A DNA stretch of 64,000 nt from Panorpa germanica. Taxonomy: Eukaryota > Arthropoda > Insecta > Mecoptera > Panorpidae. Positions 1-61,545 of the stretch are shown here, one piece after another. Where the stretch lies: positions 10,240,152 to 10,304,151 of the forward strand of contig OY783218.1 in assembly GCA_963678705.1 (NCBI GenBank), given 5' to 3'. The notes below the pieces were generated by a model. The model saw only the letters and a program-made list of their open reading frames with translations. It was not told the DNA's origin and made no database searches. Made by a program: the position numbers and the translations under genes. Each line of letters begins with the position of its first letter. Within the stretch, counting starts at the first letter, position 1.

Positions 1-539
1 CTGCAATGGAGATATCGGGGAAGTCTGTTGTGTATCATTTCCTGATAATAAATCCATTTGCCATGTAGAATTTGGGCGGGATTTAAAACATCTTCTTAGT
101 TCTTCAAAGGACCATTTTTAGAGGAGCGTCTAATACCTGGTCAATGATTGCAGAATTTTTGACCATAAATTCGCGTACATTGAATGATATTTTGCGACAA
201 GATACTAAATGAGTTACTTTTGTGCCAAACTTAATTGTTCATCAAAAAACATTCTCACAATTTTGATTATCAATAATTTTACATCTGTAGATTATTAACA
301 ATTACTACATCTGGTAACACTATTGTTTAGTTAATGGTCGTAGAATTTGAGTCTTGGAGACAATTCTGAGTGCACAATATCATAATAATTAAACAAGACA
401 AATTCCCGCTACTTTCTAGATGAAATATATGACCAAGCCACAAAGGAACAAGTTAACATGTCCTAGAATTGAGTAATTCCTTTTAATGTTTCTTCCAAAA
501 TATACAATTCTATCGTTTTTGGTTGATTTTCTTCCTCAG
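1..539. other. Intronic or upstream sequence, no feature seen
   Basis: No coding region, repeat or RNA gene was recognised here. A pyrimidine-rich stretch ending in CAG at 537-539 is the splice acceptor of the first visible coding exon, so this stretch is probably the end of an intron of the gene at 540-12147. Confidence 0.5.
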
Positions 540-3500
540 GTTCAGGTATGTTAGGAGGATGGTGGTTTGGAGCATCTCCATCATCACCAGATAGTAATTT
601 TCTTCGTGTGGCAACAAATGCATTTCCAAATAGAAGACTTTCTGATAATACTTTAATGACACCAAAAATAAGAATAGCCCCTTCGTGCGCATCTTCTCCA
701 GGAGGAACACCTGGAGGAGGTCTTCCTATACGAAGACACTCCAGCATCGGGCCACAGGAACGAAGGGGCTCTACTATGAATCTATCTCCTCCAACTGTAA
801 GTGTTATTACCTTCTTATATTTTATTCGCTGTTGTTTAAATTAGTAAGTGTTGTGTAACTTAAAACATAATGTGAGTTTCGCAGATCCTTTTGTAACAAA
901 TTTGACGCTGCTACTGCTCTGTATACTGCAGGTGTATATTCTGTTCTAATATTAACACTGCGTCCATTTTGTGATATGAACTATGTACTTACACAAACTC
1001 TAATCACTGAATCAAATGAATAATCATGATCAAATATTAATCTGTATGTAACGCAGATTCATTTATGTCATGCTTGCGCAAGCAGCCTGAAGGCACATAA
1101 TTACATTATTAGATTCAGTCTGAACCTGTATGTATTCAACGTATACATAATCTCCAAAAACAAAAGGGTATTATTTTAATTTGTCTATAATAATACTAAT
1201 AATTAAATATAGAAATTCGTTAGATTCTAGCGCTTGAAGGAGTAAGTCAATGTTCACTAACATTTCATACGGTGGTGGATTTAACGATTAACTTAACATG
1301 TTCTTTTAATGACACCAAGTTTAATTTAGTGCAGTTTTAATTATGCAGAAGTTTACAGCAAGAAGAATAATGTGCACTTTCTGTGCACTCGCCTTCTGCT
1401 GCATTCGGTATCTAATTCTAAGGTACTATTTGATTTTCTTGGGCTCTTGCGTATATATTACGTCCATTTGAAGATATATTGAAGATGGATATGTAAGATT
1501 TACACGTATTTGTGTGAAATCTAGTCTAGCTGGAGTATTAATCCGCAGCCTAACTAATGCATAAATCATTATATTCTAATCTCTTTCATATATATTTCTT
1601 TTGCAAATTTTTCCGTCTTAAAAGTTTTAATAAGTGAAGGTTTTATAGATTTAAAACTATAAACTATTTTTAATCTGGTCTGCAGTTTTAGACAACACAT
1701 ATAAAATGTGCATTAGATAAGATATGCTACAACAAAAGAAAATACTTCAACAAAAGAAAAAATAATTGTTGTTATTAAAGCAAAGAACTGGTGCTATAGA
1801 ATAAAATTTTGCAATGAATCAAAGCAACAAGCAAGTCTTTACAATCGATACGAACAATTCTCTTTTAACCAATCTAAATCTGCCACCTCTTTCGTGGATA
1901 TCTAGCTTTATGTTAATGTATATAAACCTACGATAATTATTTAAATTAGCTGCACTATTTGTTTTGAAAATTGTAAAAAAAACTATTTCATTTTTATATT
2001 TTTTTTGGCAGTTATTGTATACTAAAAATATGTACAAATTACTATTTGTACTTAGAAATAGACAATATTAAGAGTTAAAGTTGAAATTTCAAATTTGAGG
2101 TTAGAAATAATAATAATAATGTTTTCATATTTCACATTTATTGGTCACTTTAACCATTAATATTGTCTAATTTCATAATAAATAGTAGTTTAGTAGATTT
2201 GTACATGTTTTGACGAAAATGCAGTAGTTTTTTATCTAAATATTTACCAAACCTAGTAAATATTCTTCTCGCTACGCAACAATTATGTCTTAATCACTGG
2301 CGTAGCTAGGTATGGGCGAGTCGGTGCAATGCACCGGGGCCCCCAAGCTCAGGGGGCCCTCGGACTTTTATAACTTATATTTATATTTTAACGGTTTCAC
2401 AGTGAAGTATAACTAAGAGTATTAGTAAATGGTTATTCCCGACAATGCTTACAAAACTTTTATAACAAAAACATAAACAATAACAAAAATTCTAAATAGG
2501 AATGATTTTTTTTTATTGAGAGTGTATTTCATAGTCACTTCTGTATAAATTTATCGCTGAACATGAGGAAGGGGGGAAGCATGGACCAGGCAAGGGTCTA
2601 AGTCTATTACGTAATTCTCTCAGGCAGAGGTACGCATTCTAGAGTTGTTTATGTTGAGATTAAGCTGAAACAAAAGTAGCTGCAGGATTGTACTTAGAGT
2701 CTTAGAGCGCAATACACATACATGTAGTAAGTAGTTTTGCTGTGCCATGCAGTGCACGATAAAGAGCTGATAATAAACTAATAGCTTTGTACCTTTAAAG
2801 TATTTATATTTAGTTAGGGGCCCAGATTTTATTTTTTTGCACCGGGGCCCTTGGTTACCTAGCTACGCCACTGGTCTTAATATTATGTAATTATATTTAT
2901 TACACATCATAATGATAATGAATGTGATTTCGCTTCGCTCAGCCATATAACAACATCAAATGTACATTACAAAATTAATTCGAAGGAAACAGACAAACAG
3001 ACAGACAAGTGCTTATAAATACAGACGCAGTAGCAAGCAGAAACGGAAATAGTCGTTCTCGTGGAAACTCTCTAATTAATACATATTCATATTACTCAAA
3101 TATATACGAGTGTTATACATCTTCCAGAGAAACAGAAGTAATATAATATGTTTGACTTTATAATGGTACTTCTGATGACTGCCGAACTCACTTCTTGTTA
3201 CTTTACTCGTAGCGTCTCAAGAAAACCGTCTCTGTAGATGTTGAGAAGTAAATATTATATAAAACAACACTTCGTTATCTAATTAGAGTCTTTAGAAAAG
3301 TATGAATTGATAATTAACTAGGTTATATTCATATTTGCAGTGAATATTTATTACATAAGTTGAATACAACTAAATCTTTTATAAGGTTTCTTTTATTTTT
3401 ATTAAGACAGAAAAAATGTATTACGGGTATATTTTTTCTGCAAAGGAAAGGACAAATAACTTTCAATAAAACTTCTTTCATTGCTGTGACGACACAGTGG

Positions 3501-13635: not shown

Positions 13636-14910
13636 TTAAGTCGTTATAGAAAATAAAGAAGTAGTCTGTTCAAAAATATTTAGTGATTGTCGAAATACAG
13701 ACTTAAATATTATGCCATACATATATGAAGCCCACATCAAAAATAGATCAACGTTAAAAAAAACAACAAATTTCGGATAAGAACTTCCGATCGATATAAA
13801 GTTTTAAAGTTTAATAAATTAATGTTCTATTTGCATTAGGCAGTGGTGTAGTTTACATATATGAGACCTCAACACCATAATTGATAAGAGTCAGTATCAA
13901 AAACATGCCGACGTTAATTAAAAATAAATAACGTATTATTACAAGATAACTATTTTGAAATACAGGTGTTATAATTTTTCTTTGCATTTTCAATCAGGCT
14001 TTTTGAAAATTTACTTTGCAACTTTTGTTTTTTCTTTTATTAACAAATTTAAAAGGTTATGTGAATTGTCGCTCTATTAAAAATAATTTTTAAAAACAAT
14101 TATTAAAATAAATATTTACTGCAAGAGTTATATTTTTTGGCTAGTCGTATCATTGATTCATCTTGATAATTAAAAAAAAAAAATTCGTCGTCATTTTCTT
14201 TTACATACATAAATAATTATCTTCTAAAATGGATACTATCGCTATTTCTGTCTTCATGAGTGAAATATCATTTATTATTATTAAAGTTATGTTCACAATT
14301 GCATTTATAACATGTTTGTATTTACAGCTTATATTTTTAAGTATTCATTTATTTTTGTTGCTGTAATTTGTTGTCTTAAGCATTGTGAACTCAACTTTCT
14401 TCACATCTTGCGCGGGGGCTGTCTGAACGTAGTGCCTAGCTAAAAATATGTTTAAACTCCGTATTACAATTGGGTGGTGTTTTCTTAAAAAAAAAGAAAA
14501 TTACTAATTTTTAAAAACTAAATTTTACTGTCAAGAACAAAAATTATACTAAATTTGTTAATTTCTACTTGAATTTTACAAACAATGAGTTTCGATTTAT
14601 TTATAAACAAAATAAATATCTTAAACGTGTAGTCGAGTTTCGATGAATACATCGCGAACACTTTGTTAGTTGTGTGCATATGACGTCACAGAAGAAATAA
14701 GACATCGAAATCATTATAACCAGACGCTCTTAAATGTCCAATTATTTTTTAATAACTCCTTATATTGTAAAATATATTAACAACTAAAAAGGTCATTTTT
14801 TCAATTTAATTATTAAAAGGATTTAACGTGATAGAAAATTTCAATAAATGTTACGTCACATGTAGCAAATATACCATCTCTATTAAATAATCTCTATTAC
14901 TTATTACTAA

Positions 14911-15576
14911 TGGGCTTGTGTCCTATGTCTTAATTTCTATAAAAGTGTACTATATATTGATAAAGTGGGTTACTAGAACCTCAAATGATCAATTATTTTT
15001 TAATAACTCCTTATATGTTAAGAGATATTACCAATTAAAAAAGTCATTTTGTCTCTTTAATTATTAAAGGGATTCAACGTTGTACACATTCCAAGTGCAT
15101 GTGACATCACAATCCTTGTGTAAAGTTACCAACCGATCATAAATCATAAGATCATACATACATACATACAGATCATAAATCTCTGCTATATGTATTTATA
15201 TATCAAAATATCAAATATTATTTACAGCTATTTCAAGGAACAATCAAATTTCAATATTATGTCTGCCTTAGCCGGGTTAAATAAAATAAAAACTTATTAT
15301 TCTTTGACTTGACTTGATTATTTGACTACGAACAGCTAAAAAAAATTACCAAAGCACTGACCTACTCAACAAATAACTGACGTTAAAATGCATTTCACGT
15401 CATACAAATATGGCCGACCATTTCTAGCGCTAAAACTACAATTCAAACTTTTAATTGCTATATCTCCGTCAATATTTAGATATTTAATAAAATAGACACG
15501 CCAATACACATTTATTAACATCAATTTCAATCAACAATTGAAAAATCGACCACTAAAAAATGAGGACACAAGCCCA
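14911..15576 (+). mobile_element. TGGGCTTGTG-family MITE, full-length
   Basis: Terminal inverted repeats are TGGGCTTGTGTCCT and AGGACACAAGCCCA. Internal sequence is shared with 41652-42210 (same orientation), 50866-51505 and 59824-60395 (inverse), and a fragment at 36241-36415. There is no coding capacity. The copies are similar enough to suggest a fairly recent burst. A short internal array of CATA repeats is unique to this copy. Confidence 0.82.
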
Positions 15577-16460
15577 TTTCAGCGCTGCCCTAGAGCACGT
15601 TAAATATACACAAGAGATCGTGAAAACGTATAGAAAAAATTGACCGTTTCCGTGATTTCGTTACGTTTTTAAATGTATTTGTAATCACCCAATCGTAAGA
15701 CGCAGAGTGTTCTGCTAAATTGAGCCTGAAACATATTAGATGTATTAATTAGAGTAGAAGTAGTAGCATCAAAATAATTAAAAAGAAACAAATAGAAAAC
15801 ATTCTAACATTCTAAGATAAAAAAAGAAAGTAATATTTTCTATTTAAATTTTTTTTAATAAACAATCGTGCGCCTGTTCTTTTAAATTCATTTTTACAGT
15901 TATATAAAATTCTATGTTAAAAATACATATCGCTATTAAATATAATATGTTTCATAAAATCATAATGCCCTATTAAAGACGAATTGGTAGCTATAAAAAT
16001 CTGACTTTTGCTGTTTTTGAAAAAAATAATCATCATTTTAATTTTATAATTCGTGAGAATAGCTAAGTTGAATTATTACTATAAAAATAAGAATCATGTA
16101 ACATGTACCTTAAAAACAATATTTACGTAGTTGATACGTTACATTGGGTAAAAATGGAACATATCTCTATGTAAAAGTTACATAAAGAATATTTTAAACG
16201 TATCTTTAAAAATTGAGAACAGGCACTCGATAATCCAAAGAAACCTTTTTTTTAATTGTGTATAACATATTTGTAATATTTTTCCAGTATCAACTATTCT
16301 CCGGAAGGTCTTAAAAAAACGGATCTATTAAAAAAAGAAATCGGGAAAATTGACAGAACTTCCACAGGAACATTGTTAGTAATTTTAATTTTTCAGTGTT
16401 TAAAAAAAAAAATAGTCGAAAATTTGAAAAGAAATATGATATGTATACTAATCGTGACAG

Positions 16461-38789: not shown

Positions 38790-40557
38790 GAGTATACCAG
38801 AGTTTACCCTCGTCGCAAAGCGACGTCTTTTTGGCGTGTATGATTTGAATCCAATAAAATAATTCGTAATTACTTTTCATATTTAATTCTATTTTTAAAT
38901 TGAAATAATAAACTCGCAGAATATTAAATAATTTTTCAATTTATCAAAATAAAAAATATATTCAATTTATGCGTTATTTGACCAACTTTTTTTCAAAATT
39001 TGGGTTTTTTTTTCGATTCGTAATTAAGTAACCAAGGTTAGCCTATATATAAAATTTCAACTTTCTAGCACAATTTTTACTCTCGGCAAATACTGCCCCC
39101 GTGCCCCCAAATAAAATTTTGGAATTTTGAATTTTCTTTTATTAATAATATACTTAATTATTCTAGAATCCAGAATATGAATTTTCTCCAAAGTTCCCTA
39201 CGGGGCCTCTGAATTTTTCAACTTCCCCTTTTTCAATTTTTGAATTTCTAATTTTTGAGATATGTCAGCATTGAATACCTTAATACACACGCAAAATTTC
39301 AACTTTCTATGTTTTACGAATTAAAAGAAATACAGCAAAAATTGGCTCACTTTTTTCCAGTTTTTCCAAAATTACGGGTTTCCAGGAAATTCAGGGAAAA
39401 ATCTGGGGACGCCAAAAGTCTTTTTTTCTCTACGAAATAGGCAATTTTCAAAAACATTGACGGAGCCGTTTTCGAGCTACCATACGAAATTTAGTGCCAA
39501 ACATATAAGAATAGAAACATACAGTTGGAACATTATAATATAGGATATATATATATATATACGAGTATATATATATATTTAGGTATAAATGAATAAATAA
39601 AAAACGAATTCAGTCTAAAACAATGAGTAATTGTCATTTAATCAATGTTTCTTCTTGGAAGCCGCTACAAATGTGGATTTAATTTTACAAACATATTACT
39701 AGTATCTTTTTAATTAATTAATTTTTTATATATGTTTTTTTTTAGGTTAGATATCCAATACAAAAAAATTTAAATTATTTAATATATTACTTTTCTTTTT
39801 TTAATAACATGTTAATATTTTATTTTATTTTTTGACTTATCACAAAACTGTACGTACAAAACTAGCTCGCTAATGTACAAAAATGAGATTCCATTGTGAG
39901 CATAATTAACAATCATAATTAAATATTGTAAGAATTTTATATATTTTGAATAATTTGATTGGTGTTTTTGAATTACACTAGTTTTAAGATTAGTTCCAAT
40001 ATTTATAGTAATTAATAAGTGAATATCGTCAGGTAGAAAATGTAACATGTACATTAACAATGCAAGACAATCTTCTACCTAGGTCTTTCTAAACAAGAAC
40101 TGGAATTGTTATTGAAATCATTGTGAATTTAAGTATGTTCTTTGATTTCGTTACCACCTCCATACGAACTCCAGTTCGTTTTCTATTTAATTAAAGTAAT
40201 TGTGAGTTCTATTAGAAATAAAATGATATAGTGTACCATTTATGCAGCAGAAGTAAAATTTATTAGGTATTTGTGGAATATAAGTATATTTTGTTAGTGA
40301 ACTACATAAATTAATAATATTTATTAAAGTAATGTTCTTTTATTTTTATGTAGTGAAAAGTTTTACAATTTAGAAATAGTAAAAAATGAATTCCGTAATA
40401 ATTGATGGAAATAAATAATTTTTCTTTTATTTAATTTATGCTACCCTTACTATGTTAAGAATTTTCACATCTTCATATATGTGGACTGTTTAACATTTAG
40501 AATCTCGCATTAAAGTCATCAGGTAAAAAGGAGAGGACCAAAAGTCATAGAACGTTC

Positions 40558-40680: not shown

Positions 40681-41651
40681 CTGTCTTCACCTTTATTGCA
40701 GCTCCTTTTAAGCAAACACAGGGCCGCCCCCCAAAGTTACCTATTACCTAATGATGGCCAAATCATACTTTTTGGAGGCATACATAATCTAGAACACCAA
40801 TGAAATATATGAACAGAGCTAAAAAGAAAATATGTTGAAAATTAAATAATTTTTTTTCCAGTTTTAAATGTAATTTGGACTGACGATCCAAATCCATTTC
40901 TTTCAATATTATTTAGTGTTTTAAAGACGATGGTTATCTTCTTATTCCGCATATCGTAATCTTTATTGAATTTTATTTAATAGTTACATACAAAGAGTCC
41001 GCGGAGCGGTTAAAAAAACACAATTATATTTTTAGAACTCCGCGTAATTTTACATTGAAATATTTGTATTAGCAGGGATTACTTTTAATATTGATGTCGA
41101 TAATACAGATACCTGTTAGATATATTAATTATTTAAAAATTATATTTATTTACTAATTAATATTTATTTTAAATGTAATAACTTTTCACTACATATTCAA
41201 ATCACACAATACGCTAAAATAAAATATTGAAAGGTTTTTAAAACTAGTGTTTTTTTTTTAATTTCTTACAAATTATTATATCTTGATTCACAACCTACGT
41301 AACCATTTTATAAAATACAAATTTTTTTGATTACAAGTTTATTCTTAATAATGATTATTTTAATATTTAAATATTGCTGCACATTCGTTAATATTTGTGT
41401 TAGAATTATATTTCATTTTTAATCCAGTTTACCATTTTCTAATTTTTGAAATTTTGTCATTTTCAATTGTCCGTATAAATATACTTTTTTAATTAAAAGT
41501 AGCGACAGTATTTTTTTCGTATAGTTTTCAAAAGTCTGCTTGAAATTGCTTGAAAATCGGATAAGCGGTTGAGTAGATACAAATTTTTATTAAAAAAATG
41601 AAGCTTTTGCTGATTTCTTTGTTTTCCAGTCGATAAATTTATTTTCACTAA

Positions 41652-42210
41652 TAGGCTTGTGTCTTATGTCTTAATTTCTATAAAAGTGTACTATATATTG
41701 ATAAAGTGGGTTACTAGAACCTCAAATGTTCAATTATTTTTTAATAACTCCTTATATGTTAAGAGATATTAACAATTAAAAAAGTCATTTTGTCTCTTTA
41801 ATTATTACAGGGATTCAACGTTGTACACATTCCAAGTGCATGTGACATCACAATCCTTGTGTAAGGTTACCAACCTTACAGATCATAAATCTCTGCTATA
41901 TGTATTTATATATCAAAATATCAAATATTATTTACAGCTATTTCAAGGAACAATAAAATTTCAATATTATGTCTGCCTTAGCAGGGTTAAATAAAATAAA
42001 AACTTATTATTCTTTGACTTGACTTGAAATTTCGACTACCAACAGTTACAAAACATTACCACAGCACTGACCTACTCAACAAATAACTGACGTTAAAATG
42101 CATTTCACGTCATACAAATATGGCCGACCATTTCTAGCGCTAAAACTACAATTCAAACTTTTAATTGCTATATCTCCGTCAATATTTAGATATTTAGTAA
42201 AATAGACACA
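41652..42210 (+). mobile_element. TGGGCTTGTG-family MITE, right end missing
   Basis: It begins TAGGCTTGTGTCTTATGTC and follows the 14911-15576 copy closely up to TTTAGTAAAATAGACAC. The terminal ~85 bases of the full element are replaced by unrelated sequence. Confidence 0.8.
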
Positions 42211-43795: not shown

Positions 43796-44602
43796 TTTTG
43801 CAGTGTTCTTTAACAAATTATAAAGGGTGTCCCAAAATTCAACGATAAGCTCATGATTACACAAGAAAAAAAGAAAAAAAAATTTTATCTCATTTTGTTT
43901 AGGAATTAGAAAAAAAATAATTTTTTTTTCGAAAATTGAAACACCTTAAGATGTTTTTAACTACCATGACCACAATTTTTCAAATATTTCTGAATTTTTT
44001 TTTGTATCGGCAACCTAAATAACACTGCTATCCGCCAAAACCATTAAAAATCCCAAAATACTAGTAGTTTTTACACAAAATTTAATCGAAATTATTTTTT
44101 TCCCTAAATTTTTTAAAGATTTTTACTTTCAGTCAATTTTAACTCATCGTGGTGTAAAGAAAAAGTATGAAGACTACTATGGCAAGTTTTTTTAAAAATT
44201 GGCGCAACTCTTCACGATTCCAAAATGGTATAATACTCCAGGAAAACTAGCAATAAAAAAAAATTATGCATACTATTTCTAAACAAGAACCAAATTTCAT
44301 AAATTGTTGTTGCAAAAACTACTAGCATTCTGGGAGTTTTAATGGTTGTGGTGGATAGCAGTGCTATTTAGGTTGCCGATACAAAAAAAAAATTAGAAAT
44401 ATTTGAAAAATTGTGGTCATGGTAGTTAAAAACATCTTAAGGTGTTTCGATTTTCGAAAAAAAAATTTCCTTTTTAAAAAATGAGATAAAAACTTTCTTT
44501 CTTGTGTAGTCATGAGCAGGACCACCTTCTGGTGCCGGCTTATCCTTGAATTTTGGGACACCCTGTATAAACAAGTGTTTTTTTGCAGTGTTCTTTAACA
44601 AA
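43796..44602. repeat. Foldback repeat (AGGGTGTCCC ends) flanked by a 22-bp direct repeat
   Basis: From 43824 to 44564 the sequence is a near-complete hairpin. The ends AGGGTGTCCCAAAATTCAA are inverted copies, and internal blocks (CGGCAACCTAAATA, GGATAGCAGTG) are mirrored with the centre near 44195. The right arm has a ~20-base GC-rich insertion near 44520-44540. The unit is bracketed by a direct repeat containing GCAGTGTTCTTTAACAAA (43796-43817 and 44581-44602). Confidence 0.75.
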
Positions 44603-50721: not shown

Positions 50722-50865
50722 CTGTAAAGAAAGCGACAAATGTTATTATTGATCTAAGATAAAAGATTAGATAAAATGGAAGGGTGTACGGGAGACTACT
50801 TTTACAAAGAGAACATTTTTTCTTTTTAAATAAGAACTTAACTTTAAATTTTATTTTCACTATAA

Positions 50866-51505
50866 TGGGCTAGTGTCCTCATTTTTTAGTGGTCGATTTT
50901 TAAATTGTTGATTGAAATTGATGTTAATAAATGTGTATTGGCGTGTCTATTTTAACATATTTAATATCTAAATATTGACGGAGATATAACAATTAAAAGT
51001 TTGAATTGTAGTTTTAGCGCTAGAAATGGTCGGCCATTTGTAAGACGTGAACTGCATTTATACGTCAGTTATTTGTTGAGTAAGTCAGTGTTGTGGTAAT
51101 GTTTTGCAGCTGTTGGTAGTCGAAATAATCAAGTCAAGTCAATGACTAATAAGCTTTTATTTTATTTAACACTGCTACGGCAGACATAATATTGAAATTT
51201 TATTGTTCCTCAAAATAGCTGTAAATAATATTTGATATTTTGATATATAAATACATATAACAGAGATTTATGAGCTGTAAGGTTGGTAATCTTACACAAC
51301 GATTGTGATGTCACGTGTATTTGGAATGTTGTACAACGTTGAATCCCTTTAATAATTAAAGAGACAAAATGACTTTTTTAATTGTTAATATCTCTTAACA
51401 TATAAGGAGTTATTAAAAAATAATAGAACATTTGAGGTTCTAGTAACCAACTTTATCAATATATAGTACACCTTTATAGAAATTAAGACATAGGACACAA
51501 GCCCA
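50866..51505 (-). mobile_element. TGGGCTTGTG-family MITE, full-length
   Basis: The ends TGGGCTAGTGTCCT and AGGACACAAGCCCA enclose an inverse copy of 14911-15576. It lies within ~150 bp of the GPCR 5' UTR exon, probably in the 5' intron. Confidence 0.82.
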
Positions 51506-52631
51506 TTTGATTTGCCAACATTAACAAACAAATGAATATCACACTAGTAAATTTACAAAATCAATGTATTAAGTTAAGTTTATTTTAAATTACGAGTATA
51601 TTAGAATAAGATTGCATGAACTATAAGAAGTGAACAAAAGTAGAGTAATATATTATTTTAAAGAGCTTTAAAGCACAGCTTTCTAAGTTCTAAGTTCTAA
51701 ATTCTTTAAAGTTTATTGAGCTAAATGTAGTTACGTTATAAAGATTAGCAAATCGTTCAAATATAAACAAATCATTTTAGTTACATAACGTTGTCCTTTT
51801 CTTTCTTACAGTAATACATATGTTTATCCTTGTCATGTGATTGCAGATAAACATCGTGTGTAACATGCGATACTTGCGCTCTTTCCCGTGCCAGGGCCAG
51901 GGCCCATACCCTCGTTGAGTAACAAGAGACACGCAATGCAAACTCACGTGGAAAGCAAATGGAAAACAAAATCAAGTTTAAAAAACATCAAAGTGTGAAG
52001 TGTTTCCGCAAAATGACGGAAATATATAAAGATAAATGACTTTAAACAAACCGAAAGGCTACTTATAAGCCACAATAAGGTAGTATTCATTGTGATAAAG
52101 AGAATACATGGAACAATAATACGGAAACGTGGAAATTCGAGAAAAATGGTGAAAATACAAGTCGTAAAGATAAAAACACGTCGCGGGGTCATTAATGGAG
52201 GTTAGTGAATGACCTGTACACTGAATTGCGGTGTTTGTTGGAGAAAGAAAGGGTTAAATATCATTCGAGTTTAATGGCAGATACCCCGTCCTTATTTAGT
52301 AACTAAAACATAAATATTACATTTAACATAGGTAACCTTTTATTTAAACCAAACTTTGTGTAAACAATTACCTCAGACTACACAGCCTGTACTACTACAC
52401 TATTCGGATTTACGCACAGATGTAGGAGGGTGCTTTTAGTAGCTATGAAATATGGTTCTATATGGTGTTGTTTATGTATAAGATGTATTGTAAAATAATT
52501 TGCTAATTGGTGAATAAAAAACATATAAGAATGTAATATTTCTTCCGCCTTCAATTAATAATTGTTACATTTAGTCTGTAAATATTGTTAGAAAATAATA
52601 GCAAAATATATGATTTTCATGCATTGTAAAT

Positions 52632-55335
52632 TTTGCTCGTAAGTAATGTTGCCGCACTGTCAGGCGCAAGGATGTGTAAGTTTTAATAAATTCATGGACA
52701 TTTTTTCCTAATTTTTTTTATAATTCTTTGAAATATTTTGATGCAGTTATGTTCCTTATGCTCTAAAATAAAAAAAACTGTTTCATTACATTTTTTAAAC
52801 CTTTTTTAAACCATGGACTTTTTTTTCTTATATTTTTTTTGGATTTCTTGAAATTTTTTGATGCAGTTATGTTCGTTGGGCTTTAAATTAAAGAACTCTT
52901 CCATTACATTTTAAATATCTTCATGATTCTGACTTTTATGCGACTTTTTTTAAATTCATGGACGTTTCTTTCTTAATTTTCTTTTTGGATTTCTTGAAAT
53001 TTTTTGATGCAGTTATGTTTGTTAGGCGTTAAATTAAAGAACTGCTTCATTACTTTTTAAATAACTTCGCGATTCTGACTTTTATGCGACCTTTTTTTAA
53101 TTCATGGACGTTTTTTTCTTAAATTTTTTTTTTGAATTTTTTGAAATTCTTTGATGCAGTTATGTTCGCTAGGCTTTAAATTAAAGAAGTGCTTCATTAC
53201 ATTTTAAATATCTACGCGATTCTGGCTTTTATGCGACCTTTTTTAAATTCATGGACTTTTTTTTCTAAAATGTTTTTTTGGATTTCTTGTTATTTTTTGA
53301 TGCAGCTATGTTCTTTAGGCTTTAAATTAAAGAACTGCTTTATTACATTTTAAATATCTACGCGATTCTGGCTTTTATGCGACCTTTTTTAAATTCATGG
53401 ACTTTTTTTTCTCAATTTTTTTTTTGATTTCTTGAAATTTTTTGATGCAGTTATGTTCTTTAGGCTTTAAATTAAAGAACTGCTTCATTACATTTTAAAT
53501 ATCTACGCGATTCTGGCTTTTATGAGATCTTTTTTAAATTCATGGACTTTTTTTTCTCAATTTTTTTTTTGATTTCTTGAAATTTTTTGATGCAGTTATG
53601 TTCTTTAGGCTTTAAATTAAAGAACTGCTTCATTACATTTTAAATATCTACGCGATTCTGGCTTTTATGAGATCTTTTTTAAATTCATGGACTTTTTTTT
53701 CTAAATTTTTTTTTTGGATTTCTTGTTATTTTTTGATGCAGTTATGTTCTTTAGGCTTTAAATTAAAGAACTGCTTCATTACATTTTAAATATCTACGCG
53801 ATTCTGGCTTTTATGCGACCTTTTTTAAATTCATGGACTTTTTTTTTCTAAAAATTATTTTTGGATTTCTTGATATTTTTTGATGCAGTTATGTTCGTTA
53901 GGCTTTAAAATAAAGAACTGCATCATTAGATTTTAAATATCTACGCAGATACTCAAAAAATTGCATTGCTCTTAAAATCATAAAAGTGAACCTTTTCATC
54001 ATTTTTAACAAGATTATAGTCTTCTTTCATTTAGATTTAATATATTGATATATCATAAACTAAAATGCTTATTTAAAAATGAATTATAAATTTGAAATCA
54101 GCATTCAAAATTAAGTTAAAATCCGTAATAAAATGACATATATATTTTCTTCAATTTTTATGAAAAGTAACAAGAGTATAACCTTCTTACTTTTCATAAA
54201 AATTCAAGAAAAATGTATGTCATTTTATAACGGATTTTAACTTAATTTTGAATGCTGATTTCATATTTATAATTCATTTTTAAAGAAGTATTTCAGTTTA
54301 TGATATATCAATATATTAAATCTCTTTATCAGAGTATGCAATGAAAGAAGACTATAATCTTGTTAAAAATGATGAAAAGGTTCAATTTTATGATTTTAAG
54401 AACAATGCAATTTTTTGAGTTTCTGCGTAGATATTTAAAATCTAATGAAGCAGTTCTTTAATTTAAAGCCTAACGAACATAACTGCATTAAAAAAATTCA
54501 AGAAATCCAAAAAAAAATTTTAGAAAAAAAAAGTCCATGAATTTAAAAAAGGTCGCATAAAAGTCAGAATCGCGAAGATATTGAAAATGTAATGAAGCAG
54601 TTCTTTAATTTAAAGCCTAACGAACATAACTGCATCAAAAAATTTCAAGAAATCCAAAAAAAATTCTTAGAAAAAAAAGTTCATGAATTTAAAAAAGGTT
54701 GCATAAAAGCCAGAATCGTGTGGGTATTTAAAATCTAATGATGCAGTTTTTTTATTTTAGAGCCTAACGAACATAACTGCATTAAAGAAATTCAAGAAAT
54801 CCAAAAAAAAGAATTAGAAAAAAAAAGTCCATGAATTTAAAAAAGGTCGCATAAAAGTCAGAATCGCGAAGATATTGAAAATGTAATGAAGCAGTTCTTT
54901 AATTTAAAGCCTAACGAACAAAACTGCATCAAAAGATTTCAAGAAATCAAAAAAAAAATTTAAGAAAAAAAAGTCCATGAATTTAAAAAAGGTCGCATAA
55001 AAGACAGAATCGCGAAGATATTGAAAATGTAATGAAGCAGTTCTTTAATTTAAAGCATAACGAACATAACTGCATCAAAAAATTTCAAGAAATCCAAAAA
55101 AAATTCTTAGAAAAAAAAGTCCATGAATTTAAAAAAGGTCGCATAAAAGCCAGAATCGTGTGGGTATTTAAAATCTAATGATGCAGTTTTTTATTTTAGA
55201 GCATAAGGAACATAACTGTATCAAAATATTTCAAAGAATGAGAAAAAAGAATTAGAAAAAAATGTCCATGAATTTAATAAAACTTAGACATCATTGCGCC
55301 TGATAGAGCGGCAACTATACTTACGAGAAAAATGT
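52632..55335. mobile_element. 2.7-kb foldback transposon with tandem-repeat arms
   Basis: The outer ends are inverted copies: CTCGTAAGTAATGTTGCCGC on the left and, inverted, CTCGTAAGTATAGTTGCCGC on the right, continuing into CAGGCGCAA. Each arm is an array of a ~146-bp unit containing TTTAAATTCATGGAC, TTTTTTGATGCAGTTATGTT, AAATTAAAGAACTGCTTCAT and CTACGCGATTCTGGCTTTTA. About nine units lie on the left (ATGGAC at ~52693 to 53833) and six on the right in inverse orientation (~54531 to 55263). The inner parts (53940-54160 and 54185-54420) are unique inverted arms meeting at a short loop near 54175. No coding capacity. Long, internally repetitive inverted arms are the hallmark of Foldback/Galileo-type elements; superfamily not determined. 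Confidence 0.85.
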
Positions 55336-59750: not shown

Positions 59751-59820
59751 TAAAATAAATAAAGTAAATACTTAGAACAATGGAAGCCCATTGTTCTAAG
59801 TATTTACTTTATTTATTTTA
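59751..59820. repeat. Perfect hairpin, 33-bp arms, 4-base loop
   Basis: The arm 59751-59783 (from TAAAATAAATAAAG to AGAACAATGG) is followed by AAGC and then by its exact inverse at 59788-59820. The hairpin replaces the left terminus of the adjoining MITE copy. Confidence 0.95.
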
Positions 59821-59823
59821 TTA

Positions 59824-60395
59824 TCCTCATTTTTTAGTGGTCGATTTTTCAATTTTTGATAGAAATTGATGTAAATAAATAAATATCTAAATATTGACGG
59901 AGATATAGCAATTAAAAGTTTAAGTTGTAGTTTCTAGAAATGGTCGGCCATATTTGTATGACGTGAAATGCATTTTAACGTCAGTTATTTGTTGAGTAGG
60001 TCAGTGCTGTGGTAATGTTCTGTAGGTGTTGGTAGTCAAATAATCAAGTCAAGTCAAAGAATAATAAGTTTTTATTTTATTTAACCCTGCTAAGGCAGAC
60101 ATAATATTTAAATTTGATTGTTCTTTGAAATAGCTGTAAATAATATATAATATTTTGATATATAAATACATATAGCAGAGATTTATGAGCTGTAAGGTTG
60201 GCAGCTCGTGTACAGCATGTGTTCAACGTTGAATCCCTTTAATAATTAAAGAGACAAAATGACTTTTTTAATTGTTAATATCTCTTAACATATAAGGAGT
60301 TATTAAAAAATAATTGAACATTTGAGGTTCTAGTAACCCACTTTATCAATATATAGTTCACTTTTGTAGAAATTAAAACATAGGACACAAGCCCA
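59824..60395 (-). mobile_element. TGGGCTTGTG-family MITE, left terminus replaced
   Basis: It begins at TCCTCATTTTTTAGTGG, ten bases inside the normal end, and runs to AGGACACAAGCCCA. It has small internal deletions relative to 50866-51505, for example around TTTCTAGAAATGGTCGG and near 60210. Confidence 0.8.
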
Positions 60396-61055
60396 TTGCG
60401 GTTCTTATTCGTTTGGCACAATTCAGTATTCATTTTTATTTGTTTCAAAGAAGGTGAAAGTTTTAAGGTTAATTATTTATTTATACTATTAATGTAGAGA
60501 ATCCGGGCCTGGTGTGTTTCAGGTATCATTAATAATGCGGCAGCAAAAGGACTCCAATATTTTATAACATAAGCCATCTCCGTAAGCGTTCCACGAATAC
60601 ATAAAATATGGAAGCACCTGTGCTCTGCAGATATTGCGGTAACTCTGTGACCTAGAGAACCCATGGAGGTCAGAGTTCATTCATAAAATAATGGAACGGG
60701 GCACTGTTACCTCAGTTACGTTTTATCAATATATTTATTAATATTAGTGCTTTTTGCGAACAATATGATGCACAGCATCTGATTAGGTATTACTTTTTAT
60801 TTCATTCATTATTAATCATATTTCAGGTTTGAAATGTTTTTCTAAACAACTGAAAGATTCCAAAAAATATTATTGATAATGTGTCATTGAAAACTTATGT
60901 AATTCGCTAATGAAGTGTATGTTAATTTATTTAAAATTTAGATTGTCTTGTAATTGAGTTTCTCAAAGAGAAAAAAAATAAGATTTTTAAAATTTGGATC
61001 GGAGACATAGAGCGGTTTTTGGTTAGGATAAAAACTAAAAAAGAGAAAGCCAAAA

Positions 61056-61545
61056 TTAAAAATACAACAAATTTATCAATTTTAACAAGAGTATAACCTT
61101 CTCTCGTCTCAGGAAATGCAGAAAATCTTATTTTTCTTAAATTAAAAATACAACAAATTAATCAATTTGAACAAGAGTATAACCTTCTCTCGTCTCAAGA
61201 AATGCAGAAAATCGTGTTTTTGCTAAAATTAAAAATACGGCAGTTTTATCAATTTTAACAAGAGTATATAATATAACCTTCTTTCTTTTCAAGAAATGCA
61301 AAAAATCTAATTTTTGCTAAATTTAAAAACACAACAAATTTTCAATTTTAACAAGAGTATAAAATTCTTTCATCTCCAGAAAAGCAGAAAATCTTATTTT
61401 TCTTAAATTAAAAATACAAGCAATTAATCATTTTTAACAAGAGTATAACCTTCTTTCGTCTGAAGAAATGCAGAAACTGTAAATTTCGCTAAAATTAAAA
61501 GCACATTTTTATCAATTTAAACTAAAGAATTTCTTTCATCACTGA
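61056..61545. repeat. ~88-bp tandem repeat, about six units
   Basis: Units share AACAAGAGTATAACCTTCT, TCGTCTCAAGAAATGCAGAA and TAAAATTAAAAATACAACAA, with unit starts about 85-97 bases apart and increasing divergence to the right. The phrase AACAAGAGTATAACCTTCT also occurs in the loop of the foldback element at ~54168. Confidence 0.8.

What the first reader, a model, noticed from the sequence alone, without database searches (positions are those of the whole stretch)
52632..55335. Large foldback element built from inverted arrays of a ~146-bp satellite-like unit
The whole 2.7 kb is one palindrome. The arms are unequal tandem arrays (about nine and six units) around a unique inverted core with a very short loop. 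This is Foldback/Galileo-like architecture and could extrude a very long hairpin. It can promote rearrangement, and the unit could seed satellite DNA. The family appears undescribed to me, but I could not search.
Basis: partly seen in the sequence, partly recalled or inferred. Interest (0 to 1): 0.78.

Follow-up and report, generated by a model that had tools for sequence, protein, structure and literature searches.

The report
Helitron transposon carrying a giant palindrome
The 2.7-kb palindrome is real, but it is most likely a decayed member of a family of rolling-circle jumping genes (Helitrons) whose interior has become one huge hairpin of inverted satellite-like repeats, rather than a classical foldback transposon.

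Summary
Window 52632-55331 is a palindrome: nine 146-bp units, an inverted core, then six units inverted. It belongs to a genome-wide family, with 306 matches to the 38-bp palindrome centre and none to the reversed control.

The interpretation does not hold. In 20 of 24 relatives' flanks homology continues outward, and it ends asymmetrically, with 5'-TC on one side and a small hairpin plus CTAG|T on the other. Six complete copies, 1.3-3.1 kb, have both ends; no target-site duplication is evident. These are Helitron ends. A canonical small Helitron in the same window shares the 5' region (86%) and the 3' hairpin.

So this is a non-autonomous Helitron whose interior is a giant palindrome; in one complete copy it fills 2.8 of 3.1 kb. 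The window copy lacks about 247 bp of the 5' end and the whole 3' end. Core-arm variants occur in all six pairings, so arms appear to exchange sequence.

No autonomous partner with the same ends was found, and no empty site was shown. My paper searches found no Helitron of this build.

The parts
52491..52632 (+). remnant of the Helitron 5'-subterminal region (LTS positions 248-386 of relative L015)
   Evidence: 84% identity to L015 LTS 248-386; LTS positions 1-247, including the 5'-TC end, are not found in this copy
   Evidence: 84-94% identical in the 20 relatives fetched, which were chosen by a query that includes it; in most flanks homology continues outward past it
52687..53946 (+). left array, nine 146-bp units (first and last partial)
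53947..54170 (+). left core arm, short allele S (15 alignment columns absent)
54168..54188 (.). palindrome centre; 21 of 21 bases identical to a stretch of the 86-bp repeat array at 61052-61505
   Evidence: the 38-bp centre pattern gives 306 genome matches at up to 3 mismatches, reversed control 0
54187..54424 (-). right core arm, long allele L
   Evidence: 94.2% identical to the left arm, gaps set aside
54425..55277 (-). right array, six 146-bp units, inverted
55263..55331 (-). inverted copy of the junction module; homology to the family stops here, and the Helitron 3' end is not found
   Evidence: 88% to 52632-52700; no flank homology outward (WINm row)
38797..39545 (-). separate small canonical Helitron of the same clan (TC...CGTCGC-ttt-GCGACG...CTGG, inserted A|T); the yardstick for the family's ends
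   Evidence: its positions 8-227 are 86% identical to L015 8-229, and its 3' hairpin aligns with 10 family 3' ends

Best explanation
It is a decayed copy of a non-autonomous Helitron (rolling-circle transposon) whose interior has become one giant palindrome. Build of a complete copy (shown): a 5' end starting TC with about 200-390 bp of subterminal sequence, then an array of 146-bp units, an inverted core, the same array inverted, and a 3' end made of a short stem-loop and CTAG, followed by T in the host. Mechanism (inferred from Helitron biology): a RepHel protein made elsewhere in the genome nicks at the 5' TC, peels off one strand through the palindrome, stops at the small 3' hairpin and CTAG, and inserts the copy without a target-site duplication. 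Origin (inferred): the 146-bp unit came from the 3'-subterminal region, was amplified in tandem, and a template switch of the single strand onto itself made the inverted arm. Arms then exchanged sequence by conversion or inversion, and arrays grew and shrank. The window copy lacks about 247 bp of the 5' end and the whole 3' end, so it should no longer be mobile.
For: Ten 3' ends were found by motif (up to 6 mismatches), CTAG in 7 of 10, and T, not part of the motif, follows in 10 of 10. Six copies have both ends, plus a seventh with a decayed 5' end; L011 and L013 align from exactly their 5' ends. The 3' end aligns with those of three small Helitrons without the palindrome; 96.7% of 60 stem cells pair against 23-72% when the stem is slid. 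The 5' region is shared with the small Helitron at 38797-39545, which has A|T flanks. The 21-bp 5' end has 2180 exact genome matches and a 3'-end pattern 2415, reversed controls 0 and 0. 150 Helitron_like_N matches scored, open frames up to 1489 aa, 0 of 14 control genomes. The unit resembles the 3'-subterminal sequence at roughly 68-85% over 35-150 nt.
Against: No autonomous Helitron with the same two ends was found. In 13 fetched Helitron_like_N loci, 9 of them upstream sequence only, the clan's ends appear only as separate elements beside the autonomous one or not at all in the stretch held; two autonomous families have other ends. The 5' flanking base is A in only 8 of 12 ends, three of which share flanks and one of which is the small window Helitron; TC itself reads in 9 of 12. 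The 3' stem is only 5-7 bp and on its own folds no better than shuffles in 4 of 4 family ends tested; pair counts do not beat shuffles of the 3' letters (179 of 500 reach the observed percentage). In pairwise alignments the 3' boundary is blurred by up to 14 bases. No empty site was found for seven joined flanks in 0.3 Mb of local sequence. The window copy itself has neither end.
Confidence: 0.83

Rival explanations
1. The palindrome is an independent foldback element (TIR-type or otherwise) that once inserted into a Helitron and has since been carried as a passenger, perhaps still able to move alone.
For: In some copies both arms end in the junction module with part of the 5'-subterminal region beyond it (L020, L023, L035). 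Outward homology stops at different positions in different copies, and within about 55 bases in 4 of 24 flanks.
Against: The stopping points are ragged and not one shared end. The 146-bp unit grades into the Helitron 3'-subterminal sequence, so the array looks home-grown. Among the 27 copies mapped I saw none with clean flanks starting at the junction module on both sides.
Confidence: 0.1
2. A classical Foldback/Galileo-like TIR transposon.
For: Long inverted arms of variable tandem arrays around a middle domain, as described for Tetris (PMC4079207, passages); Galileo known to me here only from a search listing (PMC4168063).
Against: The proposed ends are internal. Complete copies have non-inverted TC/CTAG ends and no target-site duplication is evident in their flanks.
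Confidence: 0.03
3. A Helentron/HINE-type element (DINE-1-like) with a central satellite array, rather than a canonical Helitron.
For: HINEs often carry satellite-like arrays between two end modules (PMC7492417, passages). Flanks are T|T in 3 of 7 bounded copies.
Against: HINEs are described with insertion into TT and subterminal inverted repeats (PMC4067079, passages). Here the end is CTAG (7 of 10), about 10 nt after a stem-loop, followed by T, with A in front of the 5' end in 8 of 12. I did not search systematically for subterminal inverted repeats.
Confidence: 0.05

Closest known systems
Helitrons (canonical, TC...hairpin-CTRR, A|T), e.g. Hel1 of insects (PMC6544945, abstract and sections 5 and 8) and Helraiser (PMC4778049, passages)
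   Same: 5'-TC, 3' stem-loop about 10 nt before CTAG, T after the 3' end, no duplication evident, RepHel-type genes in the genome
   Different: the interior is a palindrome of up to about 2.8 kb made of inverted tandem arrays; the palindromes described in the passages I saw are 16-20-bp hairpins near the 3' end
HINE / Helentron elements with satellite arrays (Cg_HINE, PMC7492417; DINE-1, PMC4067079; passages seen)
   Same: non-autonomous rolling-circle element carrying a satellite-like array between two end modules
   Different: two inverted arrays around a palindromic core, which the passages I saw do not mention for HINEs; ends and target differ
Tetris foldback of Drosophila virilis (PMC4079207, passages) and Galileo (PMC4168063, search listing only)
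   Same: inverted arms with internal tandem repeats of variable number; possible satellite seed
   Different: TIR ends with 8-10-bp duplications (Tetris) or membership of the P superfamily (Galileo); here asymmetric Helitron ends and no duplication evident

Membership tests
Helitron (canonical) | 5' end begins TC | tested here: met
   TC at 9 of 12 distinct 5' ends found by a motif that starts after it, the small window Helitron included; L015 reads TT, L018 TA, and L034 reads AT with TC one base further in; L017's 5' end is too decayed to be found by the motif. Not present in the window copy (truncated)
Helitron (canonical) | 3' end CTRR | tested here: met
   7 of 10 read CTAG; the others read CCAG, TTAG and ATAG (the search motif contained CTAG, up to 6 mismatches allowed)
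Helitron (canonical) | stem-loop about 11 nt before the 3' end | tested here: met
   5-7-bp stem ending 10 nt before CTAG, conserved in position in 13 aligned ends, 12 distinct; shorter than the usual 16-20-nt palindrome and not better than shuffles by energy
Helitron (canonical) | insertion between A and T, no target-site duplication | tested here: inconclusive
   T after the 3' end in 10 of 10; A before the 5' end in 8 of 12; 3 of 6 complete copies are A|T; no empty site recovered
Helitron (canonical) | autonomous RepHel partner with the same ends | tested here: inconclusive
   150 Helitron_like_N matches scored of 893 candidates; in 13 fetched loci none was seen to carry these ends as its own
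Foldback / Galileo (TIR transposons) | terminal inverted repeats at the element's ends | tested here: not met
   the ends of complete copies are not inverted copies of each other; the inverted arms are internal
Foldback / Galileo (TIR transposons) | target-site duplication of constant length | tested here: not met
   20-base flanks of seven bounded copies, read by eye, show no constant duplication
Foldback / Galileo (TIR transposons) | P- or Mutator-type transposase in a full-length relative | not tested
   no search for such transposases was run
Helentron / HINE | TT insertion and subterminal inverted repeats | tested here: inconclusive
   T|T in 3 of 7 bounded copies, A|T in 3 of 7, C|T in 1 of 7; ends align with canonical small Helitrons; subterminal inverted repeats not searched for

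The most novel reading that the evidence does not exclude
The palindrome is not dead cargo. The element passes through a self-folded single strand, and copying or repair of that hairpin (snap-back or rolling-hairpin-like replication inside Helitron transposition) regenerates and homogenises the arms. This would explain why core-arm variants occur in all six pairings (S/S, M/M, L/L, S/L, S/M, L/M) and why arms of one copy can be up to 98.7% identical.
Probability: 0.13. Interest if true: 0.85.

Novelty: new variant of a known kind. Interest (0 to 1): 0.6.

Why it matters
Helitron transposition is thought to go through displaced single-stranded DNA and to stop at a small 3' hairpin. An element whose displaced strand could fold into a stem of a kilobase or more, yet whose palindrome centre occurs about 300 times in one genome, is a natural test of how RepHel and host replication cope with structure, and of why an internal hairpin does not end transposition early. 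It also adds rolling-circle elements to the possible sources of inverted satellite arrays, which can cause rearrangements, and shows that foldback architecture alone does not identify a TIR transposon.

Tried and rejected
Rejected: the Foldback/Galileo reading (ends internal, no duplication evident); assembly artefact (arms differ, many loci); 52632/55331 as mobile ends. The flanks of seven bounded elements (six family copies and the small window Helitron; L011 with only 59 bases on one side), joined and compared with 304,666 bases of local sequence, gave no independent empty site; the spanning hits were self-matches, a duplicate locus or microsatellite. A 5,281-bp periodic cluster of 5' ends on C1 looked like an autonomous element but is a tandem array of small Helitrons without a long frame (L053). 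Two short exact patterns, the 5' end and a piece of the unit, found nothing in viral contigs. No Rfam family reaches its gathering score in the window. A family that I recall as moth-specific rang neither here nor in the 14 control genomes, so it does not place the organism. Organism not identified; 'insect-like' in my notes is a guess.

Papers: searches showed me no Helitron with a long internal palindrome or inverted arrays. That covers only the held open library, and of it only the listings and abstract starts shown, plus passages of PMC7492417, PMC4067079, PMC4079207, PMC4778049, PMC3789558, PMC4016481 and PMC4038834, and the abstract and sections 5 and 8 of PMC6544945. The Lep1 paper PMC3276263 is not held. 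Repeat databases could not be searched.

Full report
1. What is there. The window lies at G000:C15:10240152-10304151 of a 464-Mb assembly in 249 contigs, 29% G+C in the window. Window 52632-55331 is a true palindrome. Tandem Repeats Finder gives two arrays of period 146, at 52799-53946 and 54425-55282. The inverted-repeat finder pairs them; the longest pair is 53614-54031 with 54340-54757, 418 nt at 93%, and the 25 pairs shown of 70 run from 79 to 93%. Mapping one unit gives nine units on the left and six inverted on the right, with an inverted core of 224 and 238 nt between them. The single strand 53760-54610 folds as one hairpin at -387 kcal/mol, against -77.6 +/- 5.2 for 20 shuffles.

2. 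It is a family. A search with 52632-52900 gave 94 matches from 40 scored of 1558 candidates. The core gave 96 matches from 40 scored of 1007, many places matching on both strands, as a palindrome must. The 38-bp palindrome centre, with up to 3 mismatches, has 306 matches and the reversed control 0. Some of the 100 places listed lie within a few hundred bases of each other, so the number of loci is somewhat lower. I mapped 27 distinct copies, all but the window itself fetched because they resemble it: the window, L010/L040, L011-L013, L015, L016, L017-L036. L014 was dropped as the same place as L032. Both core arms are present in 22 of 27 (my tally). L018 has lost its core, L026 keeps fragments, and L029, L031 and L034 show only one arm in the stretch fetched.

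3. I compared 24 flanks outward from the 52632-type junction (L036 and the right end of L023 were left out of that comparison, and each flank included 20 bases inside the junction). In 20 of 24 the longest stretch shared with another flank is 97 bases or more, up to several hundred between close relatives. In L026p, L030m and L035p it stops within about 55 bases, and the window's right side shares nothing. Where homology runs furthest across the family it ends at one sequence whose reverse complement begins TCCTATATTATAATGTTCC. The other side of the same kind of copy ends quite differently, in ...CTCGTTGTCTTGCGACGGGCCGAACAGCTAG followed by T. In the window copy the left flank 52491-52632 corresponds to positions 248-386 of the 5' part of L015 (84%). 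The first 247 bp and the entire 3' end are not found, and on the right homology stops at 55331.

4. Complete copies. Six copies have both ends: L011 3076 bp, L012 2690, L013 2248, L015 2773, L018 1341, L027 2651; L017 (2209) has a decayed 5' end. Flanks are A|T in 3 of these 7, T|T in 3 and C|T in 1. Over all ends found by motif, T follows the 3' end in 10 of 10 (L022 and L030 share their 3' flank). A precedes the 5' end in 8 of 12 distinct ends and TC is read in 9 of 12; L014 was dropped as a duplicate of L032, L029, L031 and L034 share flanks, and one of the 12 is the small window Helitron. In L011 the stretch 238-3039 of 3076 aligns with its own reverse complement at 89.8%. L011 and L013 align with each other starting exactly at their 5' ends; L012 and L013 start two bases further out; at the 3' end the alignments run 1 to 14 bases past CTAG.

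5. These are Helitron ends. Canonical Helitrons have 5'-TC, 3'-CTRR and a short palindrome about 11 bp from the 3' end, insert between A and T and make no duplication (PMC4067079, passages). A small element of exactly that kind sits in the same window at 38797-39545, minus strand. Its positions 8-227 match L015 at 86% and its 3' hairpin matches the family's. An alignment of ten family 3' ends with this element and two other small Helitrons (L043, L046) keeps the stem; 96.7% of 60 cells pair, against 23-72% when one side is slid. Against this: the stem is short, four single family ends fold no better than shuffles, and pair counts do not exceed shuffles of the 3' letters (179 of 500 reach the observed percentage). 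Genome-wide the 21-bp 5' end occurs exactly 2180 times and a 3'-end pattern 2415 times, reversed controls 0 and 0. Most of the 100 3' matches listed, all on C1, read GGGGGTAAAAGCTAG, the small-Helitron version, so these totals count the clan and not the palindromic family.

6. Helper. The genome has at least 150 Helitron_like_N matches, from 150 scored of 893 candidates, with open frames up to 1489 aa; none of 14 control genomes rang. One autonomous family begins A|TCTACTATATAAAA (L046, L049) and, in another copy, ends GGCGAA-ACGGAG-TTCGCC-GGGTTTG-CTAG|T (L051); another family begins A|TCTTAATATATAAAAG (L043, L050, similar in L044). These ends differ from ours. In the 13 fetched Helitron_like_N loci (L037-L039, L041-L050; 9 hold only upstream sequence) the clan's ends appear clearly only as separate elements beside the autonomous one (L043, L046), apart from short weak matches. 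For several of these loci I did not locate the 5' end. The specific partner is unknown.

7. Origin and behaviour of the palindrome (inference). The 3'-subterminal sequence of the Helitron resembles a diverged 146-bp unit, roughly 68-85% over 35-150 nt. The right array therefore looks like a tandem expansion of the element's own 3'-subterminal region, and the left array an inverted copy of it. The centre of the palindrome shares 21 of 21 bases with the 86-bp repeat array at 61052-61505. Within copies the core arms are 89.7-98.7% identical in 15 copies with both arms long enough to compare. At one site the arms carry three variants: S (15 columns absent), M (12 absent) and L. The 36 arms divide 15 S, 7 M, 14 L, and the 15 copies with both arms are S/L 7, S/M 3, L/M 1, S/S 2, M/M 1, L/L 1 (tally). 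S/L occurs in both orders relative to the 5' end (window against L011-L013 and L015). The simplest reading is exchange between arms by conversion or inversion; recombination between copies could also contribute, and no test separated the two.

8. Likely life cycle. By analogy with Helraiser, where a 3' hairpin acts as terminator and circles are intermediates (PMC4778049, passages), a RepHel protein supplied in trans nicks at TC, displaces a strand that includes the whole palindrome, ends at the small 3' hairpin and CTAG, and inserts in front of a T. Shown: the anatomy, the ends and the abundance. Inferred: the helper, the single-stranded intermediate, and the template switch that made the inverted arm.

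9. What is known and what is new. Satellite arrays inside rolling-circle elements are known for HINEs (PMC7492417, passages), as are inverted arms with tandem repeats in TIR foldbacks such as Tetris (PMC4079207, passages). I saw no Helitron with a long internal palindrome or inverted arrays in searches of the held library; subscription papers and repeat databases were not searchable. I file this as a new variant of a known kind.

Noticed in passing
window 61052-61505: Five-copy array of an 86-bp unit whose AACAAGAGTATAACCTTCT motif is also the centre of the palindrome (21/21 at 54168-54188); by eye, similar repeats lie just outside the 3' ends of L022 and L030 and in the right flank of L036.
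   Followed up: partly
window 38797-39545: Canonical small non-autonomous Helitron inserted A|T between AT microsatellites; same 5' clan as the palindromic family.
   Followed up: yes
L053 (G000:C1:4079400-4085200): Head-to-tail array of small Helitrons of the same clan with a 5,281-bp higher-order period and no long frame; clusters of 5' and 3' ends on C1 suggest more such arrays.
   Followed up: partly
G000, contigs C1, C2 and C5: Among the 150 scored Helitron_like_N matches, C2 and C5 (and to a lesser degree C1) hold many, a number with long open frames and identical scores, suggesting recent autonomous Helitron activity.
   Followed up: no
window 14909-15578, 41650-42209, 50864-51507, 59824-60397: Interspersed repeat of about 0.6 kb in four copies, 82-93% identical.
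   Followed up: no
window 59751-59820 and 43818-44570: A 70-bp near-perfect palindrome (94%), and a separate inverted pair of about 280 bp at 80%.
   Followed up: no
L019 (G000:C16:5956500-5962500): Family copy with a right arm of 29 units whose spacing alternates regularly, as in a two-unit higher-order repeat: a possible satellite in the making. Its left arm runs off the stretch fetched.
   Followed up: no
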